Shown piece after piece: positions 1 through 15,343 of a stretch of DNA of 22,587 bases. The notes beneath the pieces are model-generated. The model ran no database searches. It saw only the letters and a program-made list of their open reading frames with translations, and was not told the DNA's origin. Position numbers and translations under genes: made by a program. Each line of letters starts with the position of its first letter. Position 1 is the first letter of the stretch. The DNA comes from an uncultured Gemmatimonadota bacterium (lineage in GTDB: Bacteria > Gemmatimonadota > Gemmatimonadetes > Gemmatimonadales > Gemmatimonadaceae), in the NCBI GenBank assembly GCA_946479895.1, contig CAMLHT010000028.1, forward strand, positions 1 through 22,587, written 5' to 3'.

Positions 1-335
1 GTGCCGGTGCCGCCGCCCATGCCGCAGGTGATGAAGACGAGGTCCGCGCCGGCGATCGCGCGCGCAACTTCGTCGCGATTCTCGTCGATGGCCTGGCGGC
101 CGATCTCGGGACGGGCGCCGGCGCCAAGGCCGCGCGTGAGCTTCTTGCCGATCTGCACCTTCACGTCGGACTTCGACGAGATGAGTGCCTGGGCGTCGGT
201 GTTGACCGAGATGAACTCGACGCCCTCGAGGTGCTCGTCGATCATCCGGTTGACGGCGTTTCCACCACCGCCACCAACACCAACCACCTTCATCCGCGCG
301 TTCTGCGTCGCGGTCTCTTCGAACTCAAAGATCAT
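1..335 (-). CDS. ftsZ: Cell division protein FtsZ, N-terminal part (runs off the left edge)
   Basis: FtsZ is the tubulin-like GTPase that polymerises at mid-cell into the Z ring. Translation from the ATG at 335-333 gives 111 residues. It begins [20 protein letters not shown], followed by the glycine-rich nucleotide-binding loop and NAVNRMI, then [12 protein letters not shown], the [11 protein letters not shown] segment, and, at the window edge, the start of the tubulin signature (GMGGGTGT). These are canonical FtsZ features in the right order and spacing. The rest of the gene lies outside the window. A GGAG lies 11 bases before the ATG. The gene is separated from ftsA by about 3.6 kb of foreign-looking sequence, which is unusual, and it appears to have its own promoter at 452-480. 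Confidence 0.97.
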
Positions 336-451
336 CGAGATCGAGGCTCCGGTATTGGCTGGTTTGAGGTCAGGTGGGATTCGGCAGGCAACTGCGAACG
401 CTCCCTCAGGCCTGGGAAGCAGATGTTCCGGCCGGAAGAAGTGCTCGCGCC

Positions 452-480
452 AATATAAGGCGAAGTCTCAATCCTGCCAT
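452..480 (-). promoter_or_regulatory. Candidate sigma70-type promoter for ftsZ
   Basis: On the minus strand, ATGGCA (475-480, 4/6 to the -35 consensus) is followed by a 17-base spacer and TATATT (452-457, 5/6 to the -10 consensus). This lies in a locally AT-richer patch. The predicted transcription start is near 445, giving ftsZ a leader of about 110 bases. Such a promoter would let ftsZ be expressed although the island separates it from the rest of the cluster. It is a pattern match only. Confidence 0.5.
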
Positions 481-598
481 ACCCGATTTGGACGAGCTAA
501 GTGGCTGCCAGGACACAACCTGGAAAGTCCACATTTCGAACTGGCGGAACGATTTGTGATGTCCCGGCGGGACGGGCGTCGTGCGCCCGGAGGGTTTG

Positions 599-712
599 TT
601 CGCGGATTACGCAGATGAACGCGGAAACGACGAACCGGGCGCGGTCGAGACAACCCTCGGTCTCGACCGCGCCCGGCTAGCCATTTCTGCATTCATATGC
701 GTAATCCGCGAA
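599..712. repeat. Nested palindromic repeat element (REP/MITE-like)
   Basis: The outer arms are 599-619 and 692-712, 21 bases with one mismatch, and contain CGCGGATTACGCA. The inner arms are 635-651 and 660-676, a perfect 17-base inverted repeat around an 8-base loop. The spacing between outer and inner arms is nearly symmetric, so either strand can fold into a long hairpin. The outer-arm sequence resembles dispersed intergenic palindromes I recall from many environmental genomes; that likeness is from memory. There is no U-tract, so it is not a standard terminator, although it lies upstream of the ftsZ promoter and could insulate it from upstream transcription. Confidence 0.8.
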
Positions 713-809
713 TAACTCCTCCGTCCAAGCGCGGAATCACTGCCATCCCGGAACGGGATTAACTCCTGAACCTACTCGGAATGGTTACGCAATCTGATCG
801 GAGCTCTTG

Positions 810-1065
810 CCAGAAATCCTGCAGATAGAATTTCACCTTCTCGATCACCCCATCGAGCCCCTTGCCGCCAATCTTCAGCCGCTTCGCCGACGACGTCGCC
901 GTCCCGAGCGCCCCGTAGTCGGCGAGGCCCCCACCGTCGAGAACCGCGGCGCCTCGACCGCATCGGTGAGCCCTCCCAGGCGCTCGCGCGGAACCGCGAT
1001 CCGGACCCCCGTCCCGAAGACGTCCGGCGCCCCGCATCGCCGCCGGCGAGAACAATACGACCAGT
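810..1065 (-). pseudogene. Remnant of the 3' end of a second ftsA
   Basis: Read on the minus strand, this segment matches residues ~324-419 of the intact FtsA encoded at 3924-5183, including the C-terminal KVKFYLQDFW at both. By hand alignment the DNA is roughly 85% identical. It has a 12-base in-frame gap removing HRMA, a one-base deletion near 928-931 that breaks the frame, and further gaps of about 12 and 6 bases near 1035-1050. The stop codon that follows the terminal Trp in the intact gene is CAA here. In the unbroken first 35 codons about 12 differ and about 10 of those are synonymous, so the copy diverged while still under selection for protein function. It is now too short and broken to encode FtsA. 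Confidence 0.9.
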
Positions 1066-1277: not shown

Positions 1278-1877
1278 TTACGGCAACATTGATAGCGCCG
1301 CCGTGCTACGGAGGAGCATCGAGGCCGCCACACGGTCCGCCCCCCACCGCAGTTCCCGCCGCGCTGCCACTGTCAATGCAACCGTCGCTTGCCGCTTGTG
1401 CGCCTCGATGAGCGTGCTCGCAGCGAGCGTCACGAGTTTCGCGTCGCGGACGTTCACCGACGCCACCAGTATGGTGCCGTCGCAGGACCACAGCTGGACA
1501 GCATTCCGCCTTCGATTGAAGACCACCATGCCCGGGACAGATCGGCCGACCTGAATGACCGCAGACAAGTCACCCCGCTGAATCGCGTTTGAAGCGGCCA
1601 CGAAGAGTGCGGCTTCCGGCGCCGGCAACCCGCAGCCGCCGCTCGAATGACAGCCGCAGCCCCCGCCGGTGCACCGCAGGCAGAAGTCATGCGATCCTTG
1701 GAGGTCTCCGCCACCGCTCACCGAATGATGCTGGTCTGTGATGCCGCAGACTGTCGTGGCACAGGTGCCGCACCCTCCCCCGCCGATGCCGGAATTCGGG
1801 TCCTCATCCTGAGCGCGCAACGGCGTCGCGACCAGGGACGCCAATACCAGGACCTTCAACCAGGTCTTCACATGCAT
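1278..1877 (-). CDS. Exported cysteine/glycine-rich protein of unknown function
   Basis: I do not recognise this 199-residue protein. It opens with a clear Sec signal peptide (MHVKTWLKVLVLASLVATP, then LRAQ as probable cleavage site). A mature segment of about 60 residues follows, with some eight cysteines set in glycine-rich runs (GGGGCGTCATTVCG, CLRCTGGGCGC, GGCG), then a C-terminal part of about 110 residues predicted to be mixed alpha/beta (VPGMVVFNRRRNAVQLWSCD). The CxxC pairs could bind metal or form disulfides after export. The start at 1877 is chosen because GGAGGAG stands directly before it and the signal peptide begins there; an in-frame GTG at 1910 is less likely. It lies 36 bases after the propeller gene and is probably cotranscribed with it. 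Confidence 0.75.
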   Translation of the reverse strand: MHVKTWLKVLVLASLVATPLRAQDEDPNSGIGGGGCGTCATTVCGITDQHHSVSGGGDLQGSHDFCLRCTGGGCGCHSSGGCGLPAPEAALFVAASNAIQRGDLSAVIQVGRSVPGMVVFNRRRNAVQLWSCDGTILVASVNVRDAKLVTLAASTLIEAHKRQATVALTVAARRELRWGADRVAASMLLRSTAALSMLP

Positions 1878-1913
1878 GGCTCCTCCTCCGGTGTAGGTGG
1901 ACCAACTCACCGC

Positions 1914-3032
1914 TCAGCGCTTGATGCGGAGCGTGTGAAGCTCAAGGCGGGCCTCCCCATTGGCGTCGTGATCGAAGGTGACCAGACGACCTCCCGGGAG
2001 ACTGTTGACGACGCGCTGCGGGATGCGGATTCGCGCGAGCACCCGTCCTGACGCGATATCAATCGCCTCTATCATCGTGTCGACCACTTCGGCGATGTCC
2101 GGTCCCTTCGTTTCTGCTTCGCGAGAGGGGATGCTCGGCCAGGCGCGTTGCCAGCTCTGATCTGGTACGTGCGTAAACGTCCACAGAATGCCGCCCTGCT
2201 CGGACACGCCCGCGCCCAGCGGGTTAGGTGGCGTCTTGGCGTCCCCCATCCAGACAGTTTTCTGAGGGCGAAACCAGGAAGGACCGCGCTCCAGAACGAG
2301 GTGTTGACGGCCGGCGTCGTCCCACAGCGCAATACGGTACGCGAGCCGCTCTGAGGTCCAAAACCGCCCACCGATTGATGGCGTGATATACCACGCGATC
2401 TCAGCGCCGCCGGATGTTGGCGAGGGAATCTCGCCGCTACCGCCGAAGGATCGCTGGACCTGAAGGCCATCCGGATCGATCTTCACGACGTGCACGGCGT
2501 ACCCGATGTGATCCGGAGACCGGACCAGGCCGGTGGCGATGAACTGCCTGCCGTCGAGGGGCAGCACTCCCGCGGGCATTAGGTTCGCCGGCACCGTCCG
2601 CAGCGTGCGGAGTTCCGGCGAGACGATGGTCAAGCGCCGGTTCAGAAAATCGAAGACGCCAAGTGTGTCTCCATCGAGCGGCAGCAACATCCCCCCAGCA
2701 CGGTACTCACCGGGCCCAGCGCCGCTCCGACCAATGAGGCGAAGGAACTGTCCCTTCGCATCGAATACGCGTGGCGGCAGGTCCTGCGAAAACACCCAAA
2801 TGCGACCTTGGGCGTCCAATCGCGCGTCTATCGGCCACTCCGGCAGCGGCACATCGAGAGAGCCAGCCAGCGAGAGACTCGTTCTCTCAATCGAACAGGA
2901 TCTGCAGGATACCTCGTCTGGGACGACGATCCTTTTCGGTGTGCCTTGGCTCGCCGCCGGCGCGGCCGCCGCGAGGAGCGCACAACATGTGGCGGTCAGC
3001 CAATGAGTCAAGGCAGTGGTACGCGTCGTCAT
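1914..3032 (-). CDS. Exported six-bladed beta-propeller (NHL/TolB-like) protein
   Basis: This 372-residue protein has an N-terminal signal peptide (about residues 1-29, ending AAPAASQ). Next comes a CRSC motif around residue 43, then repeated strands typical of propellers: DARLDAQGRIWVFSQ, RVFDAKGQFLRLIGRSGAGP, the GEYR motif, GDTLGVFDFLNRRLTIVSPE, and so on. The pattern of aspartate/glycine turns with a following 'F..DG.....IG..G.GPGE' motif is typical of the 6-bladed propeller proteins I associate with Gemmatimonadota and Bacteroidota. The ligand is unknown; the protein is probably periplasmic. ATG 3032 is preceded by AAGGGA about 8-9 bases upstream. It lies in the island between ftsA and ftsZ and has no evident role in division. 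Confidence 0.8.
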   Translation of the reverse strand: MTTRTTALTHWLTATCCALLAAAAPAASQGTPKRIVVPDEVSCRSCSIERTSLSLAGSLDVPLPEWPIDARLDAQGRIWVFSQDLPPRVFDAKGQFLRLIGRSGAGPGEYRAGGMLLPLDGDTLGVFDFLNRRLTIVSPELRTLRTVPANLMPAGVLPLDGRQFIATGLVRSPDHIGYAVHVVKIDPDGLQVQRSFGGSGEIPSPTSGGAEIAWYITPSIGGRFWTSERLAYRIALWDDAGRQHLVLERGPSWFRPQKTVWMGDAKTPPNPLGAGVSEQGGILWTFTHVPDQSWQRAWPSIPSREAETKGPDIAEVVDTMIEAIDIASGRVLARIRIPQRVVNSLPGGRLVTFDHDANGEARLELHTLRIKR

Positions 3033-3352
3033 TGTCGTGTTCCCTTAGGGGAATTCCGAGGTCACGTATTCCCGCGCAGAGACGCTGCAGGCATGCGACG
3101 CATTGCGCAAGAGCGAAACATGCAACCGGACAATCAGCATTATTTGGAAACCTTAATAATCTTTGCGGCCCCACTTTCACCGATCCGAGGTCGCGTTTCC
3201 CCCCCCGACAGGTCGCTACGTCAGGAAGGTCGGCGGTCGGTTCCGGTGCTCGCAGTGGGGCACCACTTCCCCACCGCCATGGCGCGCCATCGGCGGTCGC
3301 GACGGTGGCAGCGCTCGCACTCTGCGACCTGGGTCGCCCTTTCGCGCACCCG
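3033..3352. other. Upstream region of the propeller gene, no convincing gene
   Basis: The stretch 3133-3166 is markedly AT-rich in a GC-rich setting (TTATTTGG, CCTTAATAATC) and probably carries the promoter of the propeller gene, but I could not find a good -35/-10 pair. A short palindrome TTCCC-N4-GGGAA at about 3040-3053 covers the ribosome-binding area. Open frames here are arginine-rich and featureless. Confidence 0.5.
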
Positions 3353-3556
3353 GAGATACTTACCGAACAAGATCGGCTACATGCCGATCTCGCACTCGGG
3401 AGCCTTGGTCTTCTTTCAGCACATCGCGACGGTATGAACACGCCGACACTGTGCTGGCCCCGAGCAAGGCTTCGCCGAATAAGGCGGGATCTCTGACGAT
3501 GAGGTCATGACGGCCATCTGATCGACCCATTCGTCTACCATTGCCATATCGTCAAC
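3353..3556 (+). pseudogene. Probable remnant of a multicopper oxidase C-terminal domain
   Basis: Three plus-strand pieces in shifting frames match the last cupredoxin domain of multicopper oxidases in order. They are EILTEQDRLHADLALGSLG with LLSAHRDG (3353-3433), EHADTVLAPSK (from 3436), and GHDGHLIDPFVYHCHIV (3503-3556). The family pattern is 'EI.N...HP.HLHG..F.VLSRDG', 'WKDTVLVPPG', 'FVYHCHILEHED'. The distance from the first histidine (3380) to HCH (3539) is 53 codons, close to the 56 I recall for CueO. Two of the three N-terminal copper histidines, the final EH and the GMM ligand are missing, and two frame changes are needed, so no enzyme is made. The match is by eye. Confidence 0.45.
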
Positions 3557-3923
3557 GTCAGGAGCGACAGCGACCGCATGCGCCACCACCAACCCTCAAC
3601 CTTGCATCGGGAGCTCGTCACCCCTCTGGGGCTCGGAGCCCCAGCGCGCCACTCGGTCCTCGCCCAAGGAGGTGGACTCCGGCGTCCTAAGGCTCCCCGC
3701 TCATCCTTGGTATGCAATCTTGATCGACCGAGCGGGTGTGGATCTCAACCGCCTTCACAGTGCAGGGAATTCCGGGAAGCGGCCGAGCTTGTACCGCTCT
3801 CAGATGACCCGACGTGATCCCAGAGGTGAAGTGTACGTCCAGGCTTCGTGTCTCTTAGCAACGAAAGCAAAGTGCGCAATCCCACTTGCAACCAAAGCCC
3901 TCTAATGTGTCTTATGGCCCGTT
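3557..3923. other. Region downstream of ftsA, no convincing gene
   Basis: This stretch contains a tight 8-bp hairpin at 3626-3644 with a 3-base loop and no T-tract. It also has an imperfect direct repeat, CTTAGCAACGAAAGC (3854-3868) and CTTGCAACCAAAGC (3885-3898). A plus-strand frame at 3672-3905 (AILIDRAGVDLNRLH) has a less biased composition than most chance frames, but I cannot assign it and it has no ribosome-binding site. It is probably decayed sequence of the same island. Confidence 0.5.
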
Positions 3924-5183
3924 CTACCAGAAATCCTGCAGGTAGAATTTCACCTTCTCGATGACGCCGTCGAGTCCCTTCCCGCCGATCTTGATCCGCT
4001 TGGCCGACGAAGCCGCGGTCCCCAGCGCCATTCGATGCGCCCCATACTCGGCCAGTCCGACCACCGTCGAGAACCGGGGCGCTTCCACCGCATCCGTCAG
4101 CCCCCCGAGCCGCTCGCGCGGCACCCCGACGCGCACGCCCGTCCCGAAGACGTCCGACGCCAGCTCGGCCGCGCCCTGCATCGCCGCCCCGCCGCCGGCG
4201 AGGACGATCCCCCCGCTCAGCTTCTTCATGTAGCCGGCCGTCGAGATCTCCGTCTGGACGAGATTGAAGATCTCGTCCATACGCTGATGGATGATGTGGG
4301 CGAGGAGCTCGCGGGGGATCTGGCGATCACCCTGCGCCACCGTGCTCGGGAGCTGGATGATGTCGGCCGGGTCGACCATCGGCTCGTACGCACAGCCGTA
4401 GTTCTCCTTCAGCCGCTCCGCGTCCGCCTGCGTGACGCCCAGGCCGTGCACGATGTCGTTGGTGACGTTGTTGCCGCCGTAGGACACCGTCGCCAGGTGG
4501 CGGATCTTGCCCTCGTGGAAGATCGCGACGTCCGTCGTCCCCGCCCCCATCTCCACCAGCGCCGTGCCCAGCTCCTTCTCGTCCTCGGTCAGCACCGCCA
4601 GCGCGCTGGCGAGCGGCTCGAGGATCAGCTCCCGGACCTTGTAGCCCGCCCGCTCCACGGATTTGCGGAGATTGATCGCCGGCGAGCTGCCGATCGTCAC
4701 GAGATACATCTCGGTCTCGAGGCGCATGCCCGTCATGCCGATCGGGTCGCGGATGCCCATGTTCTTGTCGACCGTGTACTCCTGCGGGATCGCGTGAAGC
4801 AGCTCGCGGTCCTGAGGGATGGCCTGGGCCCGGGCGACTTCGTTCGCGCGATCCACGTCGCCCTTGTTGATCTCGTCGCCGGCCACGGCGACGATGCCCT
4901 TGCTGGTCATCGCCTGCACGTGCTCGCCGGCGATGCCCACGTACAGCTCCTGCATCTCGGCGCCGGACATCCGCTCGGCATCCTGCATCGCCTTGCGGAT
5001 CGAGCGGGTGGTTTCCTCGATGTCGGAGACGACGCCGCGGCGCATGCCGGTGGTCCTGGCCTGGCCGACGCCGAGCACCTTCAGGGTCGGATGCTTCGGC
5101 AGGTCGCCTTCGACCTCGGCGATGATGGCCGTGGTCTTGGCGGAACCGATGTCCAGGGCGGCGACGAGACGTTCGGGATTCAT
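3924..5183 (-). CDS. ftsA: Cell division protein FtsA
   Basis: FtsA is the actin-like ATPase that tethers FtsZ filaments to the inner membrane and recruits later divisome proteins. The 419-residue protein has the phosphate-1 motif DIGSAKT (residues 11-17), the 1C subdomain (about 85-165, GIAGEHVQAMTSKGIV), phosphate-2 EMGAGTTDVAIF (211-222) and the adenosine motif GGIVLAGGGAAMQGA (324-338). It ends in a short amphipathic helix, GLDGVIEKVKFYLQDFW, the expected membrane-targeting sequence. Length is normal. The ATG at 5183 overlaps the ftsQ stop as ATGA, implying translational coupling. ftsZ does not follow directly: an island begins after the stop codon, and a diverged copy of this gene's 3' end lies at 810-1065. 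Confidence 0.97.
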   Translation of the reverse strand: MNPERLVAALDIGSAKTTAIIAEVEGDLPKHPTLKVLGVGQARTTGMRRGVVSDIEETTRSIRKAMQDAERMSGAEMQELYVGIAGEHVQAMTSKGIVAVAGDEINKGDVDRANEVARAQAIPQDRELLHAIPQEYTVDKNMGIRDPIGMTGMRLETEMYLVTIGSSPAINLRKSVERAGYKVRELILEPLASALAVLTEDEKELGTALVEMGAGTTDVAIFHEGKIRHLATVSYGGNNVTNDIVHGLGVTQADAERLKENYGCAYEPMVDPADIIQLPSTVAQGDRQIPRELLAHIIHQRMDEIFNLVQTEISTAGYMKKLSGGIVLAGGGAAMQGAAELASDVFGTGVRVGVPRERLGGLTDAVEAPRFSTVVGLAEYGAHRMALGTAASSAKRIKIGGKGLDGVIEKVKFYLQDFW

Positions 5184-5896
5184 TGGAGGCGGGCGATGAT
5201 TTGGCCGGAGTATCGCAGGTCGAGCTCCACCGCGCGAGCGGCGCGCCGGCGGAGGTCCTCCTCGACCGACTGCACCTGGTGCAGGTCGCCGAGGGTCACC
5301 GTCGGCAGGGCGCGGAGGGGGGCGTCGTCGAGCTGAAAGAGCAGCTCATTAGCATTCACTCGCCTGAGTTCACTCACGCGGCGGTAGAGCGCGGGCAGCG
5401 TGTCGCGGAGGCCGGCGAGCAGCCGCAGCAGGGCCGTGTCGCGCCGGGCGAGCACCGGCGCGTCCACCGCGACCCGCGACGGGTCGATCGGCAGCGCGAC
5501 GCCGCGCTGGTCGTAGACGCGAAACCCCTGCGGGCCGGGCACGAGGGCGATGGGCTGGTGTTCGGTGATGGTGATGACGAGGGTGCCGGGAAGCTTCCGA
5601 CGGACGGCGGCCGTCGCGACGCCGGTGTGGCCGCGGACGCGGTCGGCGATCGGACCGGTCGGGTCCCAGACCGACCGCATCGTGTCGACGTTCGCGCGGG
5701 CAACGATGTCGCTCGTGGCAATGTAGCGGGTTCCCGCGATCTCCAGACGGCGCACGCGGAAGAAGTCCATCCGCCGCAGCAGCAGCGGCGCCCAGAGCGG
5801 AAGCGACAGCACGAGCAGCGCGGCGATGCCGACGAGCGCGAGCCTGAGCCGGGGGACTCGCCGGCCTTCCGGTTCGGCGCGCGTCGGCTCACTCAC
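5180..5896 (-). CDS. ftsQ: Cell division protein FtsQ (DivIB family)
   Basis: FtsQ is a bitopic inner-membrane divisome scaffold that binds FtsL/FtsB and regulates septal synthesis. The 238-residue protein has a short basic cytoplasmic tail, one membrane segment at about residues 18-41, then a POTRA domain starting FFRVRRLEIAGTRYI and continuing to about residue 115 (LPGTLVITITEHQPIAL), followed by the FtsQ/DivIB domain. The GTG start at 5896 has AGGAAG 8 bases upstream. The stop codon overlaps the ftsA start (ATGA). It follows murC after 51 bases that contain a fragment of a palindromic repeat. murB and ddl, often placed before ftsQ, are absent. Confidence 0.93.
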   Translation of the reverse strand: MSEPTRAEPEGRRVPRLRLALVGIAALLVLSLPLWAPLLLRRMDFFRVRRLEIAGTRYIATSDIVARANVDTMRSVWDPTGPIADRVRGHTGVATAAVRRKLPGTLVITITEHQPIALVPGPQGFRVYDQRGVALPIDPSRVAVDAPVLARRDTALLRLLAGLRDTLPALYRRVSELRRVNANELLFQLDDAPLRALPTVTLGDLHQVQSVEEDLRRRAARAVELDLRYSGQIIARLQ

Positions 5897-5922
5897 CGGA
5901 TGTGCTTCCTTGCGGAGTCTGC

Positions 5923-5950
5923 CCTGAGGAGCGAAGCGACGAAGGGGTCA
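5923..5950. repeat. Fragment of a dispersed GAGCGAAGCGA-type repeat at the murC/ftsQ junction
   Basis: CCTGAGGAGCGAAGCGACGA and the following GGGGTCA resemble one arm of a family of intergenic palindromes ('CCTGAGGAGCGAAGCGACGAAGG') that I recall from many genomes. It ends in the murC stop codon. Only one arm is present, so no long hairpin forms. Its core AGCGAAGCGA is shared with the complete palindrome at 15278-15343. Confidence 0.45.
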
Positions 5951-7330
5951 CGTGGCGCCCAGTCGCTGGAGCAGCTCCGGCCCGGTCTTCGTGATGTCGC
6001 CGGCGCCGATGGTGATCACCACGTCACCCGCCTTCGCCTGCCCCGCGAGCGCCTCGGCCAGTCCCGTGCGCTCACCGCGCCAGGCGAGCTTGCCGCCGGC
6101 CTTCGCCAGCGCCTGCTCGATCAAGCCCGCGTCGACGCCGGGAATGGGCTGCTCGCGCGCGGGATAGATCTCCGTCAGGTACACGGCATCCGCGGCCGCG
6201 AGCGCGCTTCCGAACTCGCTCGAGAAATCCCGCGTGCGCGTGTACAGGTGCGGCTGGAAGGCGGCCACGATGCGGCGCTGCGGAAAGGTCCCCCGTGCCG
6301 CGGCGAGGGTCGCCGCGATCTCCGTGGGGTGATGCGCGTAGTCGTCGATCACGGAGATCCCGCGCGCCTCTCCGAGGCGCTGGAACCGTCGCTCGACGCC
6401 GCCGAACTCGCCGAGCCCCGCCGCCAGCCCCGCGAACGGGGCGCCGAGCGCGATCCCCGAGGCGAGGGCCGCCAGGGAGTTCAGGATGTTGTGCCGGCCG
6501 GGCACCTGGAGCGACACCGACCCCAGGGCTTCGCCGTCGTGGACCACGTCGAAGGTCGTCCCGCGCCCGGCGTTTCGGATGCCGGACGCCACGAGCCGGG
6601 CATCCGGCGAGTCGATGCCATACCGGATGACCTCCGTGGAGCTCGGCGTCGGCAGCGTGGATGCGCCGCGGTCCTCGCCGCACAGCACGATCGTCCGCGC
6701 GCCGCGGGCGAACTGCGCGAACGCGCCGCGAATGTCCGCGAGGTCCGCGTAGATGTCGAGATGATCGGCCTCGATGTTCGTGACCACGGCGACCGTGGGG
6801 GTCAGCGCCAGGAACGAACGATCGTATTCGTCGGCCTCGACGACGTAGAGGGCATCCCCGCCCTGGCGGAGGTTTCCTTCCCAGGCGGCGACGCGACCGC
6901 CGACGAGCGCCGTCGGGTCGCGGCCGGCGGAGGCGAGCGCGCTGGTCGTCATGACCGTCGTCGTCGTCTTCCCGTGCGTGCCGGCGATGCCCACCAGCTC
7001 CCGGCCCACCGTGACCTCTCCCAGCGCCTCCGCGCGCCGGATGACGGGAATGCCGAGCGTCCGGGCGCGCTCGAGCTCCGGATGATTCTTCGGCATCGCC
7101 GACGTGACGACGAGGGCGCGCGCGCCATCGACGTGGGCGGGATCGTGCGTCGTGACGCGCACGCCGAGGCGCTCGAGATCGGCCGCGCCCCCGGGGTTGG
7201 CGTCACATCCGGTGACCTTCACTCCGCGCCGGAGAAAGAGCTCGGCGAGGGCGCTCATTCCCGCGCCGGCTATGCCGACGAAGTGAACGGGCCGGGGATC
7301 AGTCTGGTCGAGGAGAGCCATCGTCGGCAT
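5948..7330 (-). CDS. murC: UDP-N-acetylmuramate--L-alanine ligase
   Basis: MurC is the cytoplasmic ATP-dependent ligase that adds L-alanine to UDP-MurNAc, the first step of stem-peptide assembly. The protein of about 460 residues shows the N-terminal Rossmann motif HFVGIAGAGMSALAE (residues 16-30), the ATP-binding P-loop GTHGKTTTT (117-125), VVEADEYDRSFL, the NIEADHLDIY motif and DDYAHHPTEI in the C-terminal domain. All are typical of MurC and not of the other Mur ligases. The start is uncertain: ATG 7330 is used, ATG 7321 is equally possible, and neither has a clear Shine-Dalgarno sequence. It is separated from murG by 177 bases filled by a 70-bp-arm inverted repeat, which breaks the coupling seen elsewhere in the cluster. 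Confidence 0.95.
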   Translation of the reverse strand: MPTMALLDQTDPRPVHFVGIAGAGMSALAELFLRRGVKVTGCDANPGGAADLERLGVRVTTHDPAHVDGARALVVTSAMPKNHPELERARTLGIPVIRRAEALGEVTVGRELVGIAGTHGKTTTTVMTTSALASAGRDPTALVGGRVAAWEGNLRQGGDALYVVEADEYDRSFLALTPTVAVVTNIEADHLDIYADLADIRGAFAQFARGARTIVLCGEDRGASTLPTPSSTEVIRYGIDSPDARLVASGIRNAGRGTTFDVVHDGEALGSVSLQVPGRHNILNSLAALASGIALGAPFAGLAAGLGEFGGVERRFQRLGEARGISVIDDYAHHPTEIAATLAAARGTFPQRRIVAAFQPHLYTRTRDFSSEFGSALAAADAVYLTEIYPAREQPIPGVDAGLIEQALAKAGGKLAWRGERTGLAEALAGQAKAGDVVITIGAGDITKTGPELLQRLGAT

Positions 7331-7341
7331 CAATATAGAGA

Positions 7342-7505
7342 CCGCGTTTCAACTTCGGTCATTGCCGCAGTATGTGACGCATGCTCGGAATGGGTGAGCA
7401 TGCTCGAAATACAGGACTGGGTTCATCACTCGGGCTATTCCGAGCATGGTCACCGATTCCGAGCATGCGTCAGATACTGCGGCAATGACCGCCGTTGGAA
7501 CCCGA
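7342..7505. repeat. Long inverted repeat between murG and murC
   Basis: Arms 7342-7411 and 7436-7505 match at 61 of 70 positions around a 24-base spacer. Each arm contains two near-copies of GCATGCTCGGAAT about 18 bases apart, so the motif occurs four times. In the murG-murC transcript this would form a very long hairpin, starting 3 bases after the murG stop codon and ending about 11 bases before the murC start. It has no coding potential and no T-tract. It is probably a MITE-like or REP-like insertion, possibly acting as an mRNA structure that separates murG from murC translation. Confidence 0.88.
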
Positions 7506-7507
7506 AA

Positions 7508-8608
7508 TCAGCCCGGGAGCAGCCGGTGAATCCGCTCCGCGATCTCACGCGCGGCGTTCGGCCTCGCGCGCAGCGACGCCTTCGCCGCCAGCTCCTTCAT
7601 CCGGGTAGGTGAGGCGAGCACGCCGGTCACCGTCTTCGCCAGCTCGTCGACCGTCAGCCTTGATTGCGGGAGGTGAATGGCTGCTCCCGCGGCCTCGAGC
7701 GCCCTGGCATTGAGCGTCTGGTGGTCGGCCGCCGCCGTCGGCAGCGGGACCAGGATGCCGGGAATGCCCCACGCGAACAGCTCGGCCGTCGTCATCGCGC
7801 CGGCGCGCGCCAGCGCCAGGTCGGTCGCGGCGTAGGCGTCCGCGATCGGCGAGAGATAGTCCTTCACGCGCACGCGCGGAGAGTCGAGATCCCTGAATTG
7901 GTCATAGGTGCCCCGCCCAGTCGCCCAGATGACGTAGAGGTCGTCCGGGATCCCGCGGCGGACCCAGTCGGCCATTGCCCGGTTGATCACCAGCGATCCC
8001 TGGCTGCCTCCATAGATGAGCAGCACGTGTCCGCCCGTGCGTGGAAAGCCCCAGCGCTCGCGCGCGGCCGCCTTGTCGGGCAGCGGCGCGGGGGGCGGCG
8101 CGATGGGGGCGCCGGCGTCGATCATCTTCTGCCGGTCCTTCATGTCCGCGTCGAAGACCGCCGCGGCCTCGGGAAAGGCCAGATAGATCTCCCGCGACCA
8201 GCGCGAGAACATTCGCGCCGTGATGCCGGGATGGCTGTCGCCGGCCTGCTGCACCATCGGCATCCGGTGGATGACCGCGTAGGCGAGCATCAGCCCCGCG
8301 GCGTAGCCGCCGGTGCCGACGACGAGCGCCGGCCGCTGGTCGTGGACCATGTGGCCGATCTTCCGCCAGCTCGTGATCGCCCCCCGAAGTGTCTTCCAGT
8401 TGTTCCAGACCGCCGGCCGATACAGCGGATGCAGGTCGAGGAGCAGGTGGGGAAACTCGGACTTTGGCAGCACGTCGCGCTCGATGCCGCGCAGTGCCCC
8501 CACGAAGAACGGCTCGACCCGGGGGTCGAGCCGGACGAGCTCGCGGGCAATGGAGAGGCCGGGATAGAGATGGCCGCCCGTGCCGCCCCCGGCGAAGACA
8601 ACTCTCAT
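7508..8608 (-). CDS. murG: UDP-GlcNAc:undecaprenyl-pyrophosphoryl-MurNAc-pentapeptide transferase MurG
   Basis: MurG transfers GlcNAc from UDP-GlcNAc to lipid I on the cytoplasmic face of the inner membrane, making lipid II. The 366-residue GT-B glycosyltransferase begins MRVVFAGGGTGGHLYPGLSI, the first G-loop. It has the second G-loop IYGGSQGSLVIN in the middle and the donor-binding region LALARAGAMTTAELFAWGIP, followed by GILVPLP, near the C-terminus. Length is standard. The ATG at 8608 overlaps the ftsW stop as ATGA. The gene ends at the edge of the long inverted repeat that separates it from murC. Confidence 0.96.
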   Translation of the reverse strand: MRVVFAGGGTGGHLYPGLSIARELVRLDPRVEPFFVGALRGIERDVLPKSEFPHLLLDLHPLYRPAVWNNWKTLRGAITSWRKIGHMVHDQRPALVVGTGGYAAGLMLAYAVIHRMPMVQQAGDSHPGITARMFSRWSREIYLAFPEAAAVFDADMKDRQKMIDAGAPIAPPPAPLPDKAAARERWGFPRTGGHVLLIYGGSQGSLVINRAMADWVRRGIPDDLYVIWATGRGTYDQFRDLDSPRVRVKDYLSPIADAYAATDLALARAGAMTTAELFAWGIPGILVPLPTAAADHQTLNARALEAAGAAIHLPQSRLTVDELAKTVTGVLASPTRMKELAAKASLRARPNAAREIAERIHRLLPG

Positions 8609-15277: not shown

Positions 15278-15343
15278 GTCATCCCGAGCGAAGCGAGGGA
15301 CCCGCTTTTTCGGAAGCAGATCCCTCGCGACGCTCGGGATGAC
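15278..15343. repeat. Palindromic repeat between ftsI and murE
   Basis: Arms 15278-15300 and 15321-15343 (GTCATCCCGAGCG-N2-GCGAGGGA) are 21/23 complementary around a 20-base loop. The arm resembles a REP-type palindrome ('CATCCCGAGCGAAGCGAGGG') that I recall as dispersed in many genomes. It starts 4 bases after the ftsI stop and ends 15 bases before the murE start. No T-tract follows, so it is more likely a mobile repeat or an mRNA stability/processing hairpin than a terminator. Confidence 0.82.

What the first reader, a model, noticed from the sequence alone, without database searches (positions are those of the whole stretch)
810..1065. Diverged, frameshifted ftsA tail stranded beside ftsZ
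The segment next to ftsZ aligns with the last ~95 codons of the intact ftsA 3 kb away at roughly 85% identity. It carries indels, a frameshift and no stop. About 10 of 12 codon differences in the clean stretch are synonymous, so the two copies diverged as functional genes and were brought together later. This fits integration or recombination with DNA from a relative at the 3' end of ftsA. The incoming copy now completes the working ftsA, and the displaced native tail remains beside its native neighbour ftsZ.
Basis: partly seen in the sequence, partly recalled or inferred. Interest (0 to 1): 0.75.

Follow-up and report, generated by a model that had tools for sequence, protein, structure and literature searches.

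The report
Recombined ftsA end beside ftsZ
In this soil bacterium the end of the cell-division gene ftsA is present twice, once working and once as a decaying remnant next to ftsZ, most likely because DNA from a close relative recombined at a junction that often carries extra genes in this bacterial family.

Summary
Window 810-1056 (minus) aligns with the last 94 codons of the intact ftsA, 211 of 247 aligned bases identical, gaps of 8, 14, 1 and 12 nt, no stop. Differences fall 3/2/31 on codon positions 1/2/3; 27 of 33 changed codons are synonymous, so most divergence arose while both ends were working. No second ftsA tail was seen in 75 relative loci, 50 of them reaching ftsZ, or in 165 family genomes with a tail match.

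Between the copies lie a secreted propeller-like gene and a Cys-rich gene. The best propeller match in 179 family genomes lies in the same ftsA-ftsZ slot, same order and orientation, in another lineage. The slot exceeds 600 bp in 15 of 50 relatives; four other dcw junctions never do.

Best reading: two congeneric alleles of this slot recombined, homologously inside a flanking gene and illegitimately at about 1057-1065. It works like C-terminal displacement at rhs loci, here in a division gene taken to be essential.

The parts
3924..5183 (-). Intact ftsA (419 aa), overlapping ftsQ by 4 bases, ending TGG TAG
   Evidence: ORF; Pfam FtsA 5.6e-43 and SHS2_FTSA; closest listed protein 95% identical
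3927..4208 (-). Part of intact ftsA (codons 326-419) that has the second copy
   Evidence: alignment
3033..3923 (.). Stretch between ftsA stop and the propeller gene; no convincing gene, possibly decayed
   Evidence: six-frame reading; no Pfam match in its ORFs and one PHROGs match of unknown function at E 0.094; lower G+C than the ftsA-ftsQ side
1914..3032 (-). Cargo gene 1: secreted beta-propeller-like protein, 372 aa (secretion signal judged by eye)
   Evidence: weak DUF5128 6-bladed propeller match, 19.6 bits, below the 22.9 cut-off; homologues P0122-P0126, two of them with that Pfam family
1278..1910 (-). Cargo gene 2: small Cys-rich protein, secretion signal judged by eye (likely start at 1877, 199 aa)
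   Evidence: ORF; P0142, P0143; homologue behind the second propeller in the same slot of L118
1195..1277 (-). Strong hairpin directly after cargo gene 2; the scan found no terminator with a T run here
   Evidence: -47.9 kcal/mol, z -3.9; scan
1057..1065 (.). Illegitimate joint (inferred): end of cargo side against ftsA codon about 323-326
   Evidence: end of similarity in the alignments
810..1056 (-). Second, decaying ftsA tail: gaps of 8, 14, 1 and 12 nt, frame shifted
807..809 (-). CAA where the stop codon of the second tail should be (one base from TAA)
   Evidence: sequence; that a stop was lost by substitution is inference
336..806 (-). Leader of ftsZ, with a promoter-like site at 480..452 and a palindrome at 588-723
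   Evidence: 2 promoter-like sites found against 0.8 in shuffles, so weak
3..335 (-). ftsZ, first 111 codons, cut by the window end
   Evidence: ORF; FtsZ starts 80-95% identical in the rows listed for family genomes

Best explanation
In Gemmatimonadaceae the junction between ftsA and ftsZ is an open slot that gains and loses cargo genes, while the neighbouring dcw junctions stay tight. In this lineage two alleles of that slot, from two close species, recombined. One allele carried a propeller plus Cys-rich module. One end of the exchange was an ordinary homologous crossover inside ftsA (or, in mirror image, inside ftsZ) and left no scar. The other end was an illegitimate joint at about 1057-1065, which placed the end of the module side against codon about 323-326 of the other allele's ftsA. 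ftsA stayed whole, because the copy attached to its body has its stop. The other allele's last 94 codons were stranded beside ftsZ, where they lost the frame, the stop and about 35 bases. Shown: the two tails, functional-type divergence, decay of one, the module in the same slot elsewhere, and the enlarged slot in relatives. Inferred: the recombination route, the congeneric donor and the direction.
For: Codon-position bias 3/2/31 and 27 of 33 changed codons synonymous. The share of changes made without constraint is estimated at 0-0.15, upper bounds 0.20-0.37; 34 relative pairs at 0.12-0.18 divergence have on average 20% of changes at positions 1 and 2, here 14% (5 of 35). No second tail in 75 loci, of which 71 hold a complete ftsA end and 50 reach ftsZ, in 20 enlarged junctions plus G085, or in any of 165 genomes with a tail match; the 4 genomes with two matches were contig-edge copies (G123, G012) or 31-34% paralogues (G174, G176). 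The best propeller match in 179 genomes, E 6.6e-58, lies between ftsA and ftsZ of G085, followed by a Cys-rich gene in the same order (26% over 145 aa, E 1.4e-7). ftsA-ftsZ spacing exceeds 600 bp in 15 of 50 relatives against 0 of 49, 0 of 55, 0 of 68 and 0 of 70 at four other dcw junctions. No propeller relative in 50,697 phage or 72,556 plasmid records or, confirmed, in viral contigs.
Against: The two copies are sisters with 100/100 support, which a local duplication would also give. The tree puts nearly all change on the second copy (end branches 0.024 and 0.23; third positions alone 0.31 and 1.25), though outgroups are far; counting by outgroup base gives 13 and 16 third-position changes. 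In proteins the intact tail is closer than the second to 107 of 120 relatives, the second to 3, with 10 ties. No congeneric DNA could be fetched, so neither donor nor direction is seen. The slot neighbour G085 has an FtsA only 70% identical and a propeller only 33% identical, so the shared position could be two independent insertions; its first small gene is not a significant match to the window's (best E 1.7). Propeller genes are common: 61 of 179 genomes have a match, with at most 11 candidates scored per genome. No other genome shows a displaced ftsA tail.
Confidence: 0.66

Rival explanations
1. Exactly the reader's direction: the module and the present ftsA tail came in together from a relative, and the decayed tail beside ftsZ is the native one. 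(A sub-case of the best explanation.)
For: The second copy sits where a native ftsA end belongs, next to ftsZ and in the right orientation. The same kind of module lies downstream of ftsA in G085. At codon 352 the second copy has the residue of all seven nearest proteins (I), the intact copy a different one (V).
Against: Little in the sequence tells it from its mirror image. G+C at third positions is 0.94 in the ftsA body, 0.89 in the intact tail and 0.88 in the second tail. Both tails have the same nearest proteins, P0001 and P0005. At codons 336 and 353 the intact copy has the common residue.
Confidence: 0.36
2. Mirror image: the module is native to the slot, and an incoming ftsA tail plus ftsZ leader from a relative without the module joined illegitimately behind it. 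(A sub-case of the best explanation.)
For: The module occupies the same slot in another lineage, so it may be old there. Against 25 distant relatives the second copy carries the five changes at codon positions 1 and 2, though the nearest proteins reverse this at codon 352.
Against: Those changes are equally explained by decay after displacement. FtsZ and FtsA of the window have the same best genome by E-value, G004, so the ftsZ side looks no more foreign.
Confidence: 0.3
3. Local duplication: the ftsA end, or a whole second ftsA, was duplicated in place and one copy decayed.
For: The copies are each other's nearest relatives and share their last 22 residues, which none of 120 proteins has.
Against: A truncated copy would decay from the start, yet only 5 of 35 changes are at positions 1 and 2. 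It would need two working ftsA ends for a long time, and no family genome with a tail match shows a second one. It does not by itself explain the module between the copies.
Confidence: 0.2
4. Site-specific integration of a mobile element into the 3' end of ftsA, the element bringing its own ftsA end.
For: The layout (whole gene, cargo, displaced 3' end) is what 3'-end integration leaves, and the last 36 bases of the two tails differ at only one position.
Against: No recombinase or known phage function recognised in the insert ORFs tested; no propeller relative in phage or plasmid records nor confirmed in viral contigs. Similarity runs over about 280 bases at 85% rather than over a short identical core.
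Confidence: 0.07
5. Assembly artefact: two strains joined by misassembly.
For: The window has no whole genome on hand, and the copies differ about as two species would.
Against: The second copy is itself broken in several places and has no stop, unlike the intact gene of another strain. Reads were not available.
Confidence: 0.07

Closest known systems
C-terminal displacement at rhs loci (Jackson et al. 2009, PMC2935791; passages read)
   Same: A working gene gets a new 3' end by recombination, and the old 3' end stays downstream as a silent fragment; some such fragments carry frameshifts.
   Different: rhs tips at one locus are unrelated; here the two ends are homologous (73 of 79 residues) and belong to a division gene. 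rhs gives long arrays, here one fragment.
Displacement of T6SS effector genes in Vibrio (2017, PMC5361080; passages read)
   Same: Incoming module anchored by homology at its upstream side, illegitimate joint at the other end, older gene part shifted downstream. The authors propose a process akin to homology-facilitated illegitimate recombination.
   Different: There the cargo is an effector-immunity pair and the retained part may be useful; here the retained part is a dead tail.
Homology-facilitated illegitimate recombination (Amarir-Bouhram et al. 2011, PMC3240628; abstract and section list read)
   Same: One homologous end and one illegitimate end, as needed here.
   Different: Described from experiments in competent bacteria and in conjugation; here only a possible outcome is seen.
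Integrative elements that rebuild the 3' end of their target gene (recalled)
   Same: Whole gene, cargo, displaced 3' end.
   Different: No recombinase and no short identical core found here.

Membership tests
C-terminal displacement (rhs-type) | Intact gene followed by a dissociated 3' fragment of the same gene | tested here: met
C-terminal displacement (rhs-type) | Fragment silent or decaying | tested here: met
   gaps, frameshift, no stop; expression not tested
C-terminal displacement (rhs-type) | Shared core with an unrelated tip | tested here: not met
   the tips are homologous, 73 of 79 residues; so it works like this but is not filed as a member
C-terminal displacement (rhs-type) | Related strains show different states of the locus | tested here: inconclusive
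   no second tail in 75 loci, 20 enlarged junctions or 165 genomes with a tail match, but none is congeneric
Homology-facilitated illegitimate recombination | One joint without homology | tested here: inconclusive
   similarity ends abruptly at 1057-1065, but the second parent sequence is not known
Homology-facilitated illegitimate recombination | Homologous anchor at the other end with donor sequence | not testable with these tools
Site-specific integrative element | Integrase or other recombinase gene | tested here: not met
   none recognised in the insert ORFs tested
Site-specific integrative element | Short identical direct repeats at both ends | tested here: not met
   repeat is 85% over about 280 bases; its last 36 bases differ at one position
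Local tandem duplication | Decay without codon-position bias from the start | tested here: not met
   3/2/30 of 35 changes

The most novel reading that the evidence does not exclude
The ftsA-ftsZ junction of Gemmatimonadaceae works as a natural exchange site: cargo modules for secreted proteins, transport, signalling or catabolism sit there, and whole slot alleles pass between related species by recombination anchored in the essential genes on either side, sometimes swapping the membrane-anchor end of FtsA with them. The window has caught one such swap with its leftover.
Probability: 0.33. Interest if true: 0.65.

Novelty: new variant of a known kind. Interest (0 to 1): 0.47.

Why it matters
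ftsA and ftsZ are usually treated as a tight pair in a conserved cluster (recalled). Here the pair is split, the spacing is a variable slot across a family, and the end of a division gene taken to be essential has probably been exchanged with a relative's. That makes the evolution of a core gene end, and the use of an essential gene as a recombination anchor, open to test in congeneric genomes.

Tried and rejected
Looked for an integrase, phage or plasmid origin of the insert: none recognised; only three weak matches appeared (PHROGs of unknown function at E 0.044 and 0.094, Spt4 at E 0.032). Looked for a second ftsA tail in relatives to show a recurring process: none. In one search short stretches of 17-61 nt matched the tail in 7 of 75 loci (L005, L008, L017, L022, L026, L042, L062) and one protein stretch in L046 (E 0.51), all taken as chance; 21 of the 71 loci with a complete ftsA end do not reach ftsZ, six of them with under 600 bases downstream. 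In one search matches of 20-26 nt turned up in 3 of 20 junctions (L119, L123, L124).

Tried to tell the native tail by tree, protein identity and third-position G+C: no resolution. One search reports no support or clade for the pair because the unrooted tree was read with its root inside it; only its branch lengths are used. First gapped pairwise identities to relatives were unreliable and were replaced by codon alignment. In one search one relative (L092) with no comparable codons was dropped and 72 were used; one search stopped with a division by zero after its pair table. ftsA-ftsZ spacing leaves out loci whose ftsZ lies beyond the fetched 6 kb or the contig end, which works against large gaps; two of its 15 large gaps (L062, L069) carry an identical ORF and may be one species. 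In the slot tree (quick method) six loci labelled M14-like had no ftsZ in view, and other open-ended loci were left unlabelled. Literature: of the 20 papers listed out of 45 none mentions Gemmatimonadota; one search gave two papers on other elements, not read. Structure prediction was not used.

Full report
What is there. The window is the division and cell-wall cluster of a Gemmatimonadaceae bacterium (by its nearest relatives), read on the minus strand: ftsW, murG, murC, ftsQ, ftsA (5183..3924), then 3.6 kb to ftsZ (335.., cut by the window end). Gene names other than ftsA are from recall of the sequences; their relatives lie in the same order in the loci compared. In that gap, next to ftsZ, window 1056..810 repeats the last 94 codons of ftsA: 211 of 247 aligned bases identical, with gaps of 8, 14, 1 and 12 nt in the second copy. 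Its last sense codon is followed by CAA where the intact gene has TAG; CAA is one change from TAA, so loss of a stop by substitution is my inference. No whole genome is held for the window.

How the copies diverged. Mismatches fall 3, 2 and 31 on codon positions 1, 2 and 3; of 33 changed codons 27 are synonymous. Over the 79 complete codons the counts are 3, 2 and 30. Relative pairs at similar divergence (0.12-0.18, 34 pairs) have on average 20% of their changes at positions 1 and 2; here it is 14%. The share of changes made without constraint is estimated at 0 to 0.15 with upper bounds of 0.20 to 0.37, depending on the assumed background, and a half share has probability 0.0002-0.0018. So the two ends separated as parts of working genes. 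By majority base of 25 relatives, the five changes at positions 1 and 2 and 16 at position 3 lie on the second copy's side, 13 at position 3 on the intact copy's, 1 undecided. The seven nearest proteins correct this at codon 352: all have the second copy's isoleucine, so there the intact copy changed. Maximum-likelihood trees are less even: end branches 0.024 and 0.23, third positions alone 0.31 and 1.25. The outgroups are far, so I do not lean on either split.

Who is related to whom. One scan found 75 relative loci, FtsA at most 83% identical; a search of 179 family genomes found at most 84% in its listed rows. The protein database lists FtsA up to 95% identical. The two tails share 73 of 79 residues; of 120 proteins the best, P0001, shares 69 with the intact tail, and P0001 and P0005 share 68 with the second. 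The intact tail is closer to 107 of the 120, the second to 3. In nucleotides the two are 85% alike against at most 73% and 70% to any of 72 relatives, and sisters with 100/100 support among 74 rows.

Not a recurring scar. A second tail was seen in none of 75 loci, of which 71 hold a complete ftsA end and 50 reach ftsZ; in none of 20 fetched junctions chosen for their large spacing, 8 of which repeat contigs; and not in G085. Only short chance-like matches appeared. In 179 family genomes 165 have a tail match; four have two, and these are contig-edge pieces (G123, G012) or 31-34% identical paralogues (G174, G176).

The insert. Behind the intact ftsA lies about 0.9 kb without a convincing gene, then a 372-residue protein with a weak 6-bladed propeller match below Pfam's cut-off, then a 210-residue Cys-rich protein without a Pfam, NCBIfam or PHROGs match, then a strong hairpin. 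Both begin with what looks by eye like a secretion signal. The protein database gave 20 other propeller relatives (of 7,999 candidates scored, a capped number) and one other Cys-rich relative. No phage or plasmid relative of the propeller was found, nor a confirmed one in viral contigs.

The slot. Among 179 family genomes 61 have a propeller match, and the best of all (E 6.6e-58) lies in G085 between ftsA and ftsZ. That junction, 5,988 bp long, has two propeller genes each followed by a small Cys-containing gene, in the order and orientation of the window. The second small gene matches the window's (26% over 145 aa, E 1.4e-7); the first does not match significantly (E 1.7) and is likened only by eye and by 7 invariant columns of an alignment. 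More widely, ftsA-ftsZ spacing exceeds 600 bp in 15 of 50 relatives, while ftsW-murG, murG-murC, murC-ftsQ and ftsQ-ftsA never do (0 of 49, 55, 68, 70). Cargo differs: a glycosyltransferase (L009), PEP-CTERM protein (L062), M14 peptidase (L043), salicylyl-CoA hydroxylase with an enoyl-CoA hydratase (L019), and in fetched junctions of 0.8-11.1 kb other genes that by eye look like a transporter, a two-component pair, a protein kinase and a gamma-glutamyltransferase (no family search). A quick tree of 69 rows needs at least 8 changes between short and long junctions.

Reading. The simplest account is recombination between two close alleles of this slot, one with the module, with a homologous crossover in a flanking gene and an illegitimate joint at about 1057-1065. 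One new joint is enough. Whether the module and the present tail came in, or the second tail and the ftsZ side came in, is open. The FtsA end concerned is the amphipathic membrane anchor (recalled), and its last 22 residues are the same in both copies and in none of 120 other proteins.

Known parallels. rhs loci displace C-terminal tips and keep old ones downstream, some with frameshifts (PMC2935791, passages). Vibrio effector loci do the same with whole modules, and the authors propose a process akin to homology-facilitated illegitimate recombination (PMC5361080, passages), which joins by homology at one end and illegitimately at the other (PMC3240628, abstract). This case works like those, with homologous ends and a housekeeping gene; it is a new variant rather than a new kind.

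Noticed in passing
L118 (G085:C504), oriented 1964-7951: ftsA-ftsZ junction of 5,988 bp with two propeller genes, each followed by a small Cys-containing gene, the same module type as in the window.
   Followed up: yes
ftsA-ftsZ junction of Gemmatimonadaceae, e.g. L043, L009, L019, L062, L119-L124: The junction is an open slot with unrelated cargo, 0.8 to 11 kb in the junctions fetched, while neighbouring dcw junctions stay tight.
   Followed up: partly
window 588-723, 7343-7504 and 15278-15343: Intergenic palindromes (arms of 64, 69 and 30 bp); a 23-base exact piece of the first occurs in L015.
   Followed up: no
window 1914-3032 and 1278-1910: Propeller and Cys-rich pair of unknown function; weak matches of the Cys-rich protein also lie near propellers in L108 (E 2.5e-4) and L115 (E 0.002).
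   Followed up: partly
L043 and ten further loci: Related proteins of mostly about 1000 residues sit behind ftsA in the Gemmatimonas clade; the one tested, L043, has a zinc carboxypeptidase (M14) domain.
   Followed up: no
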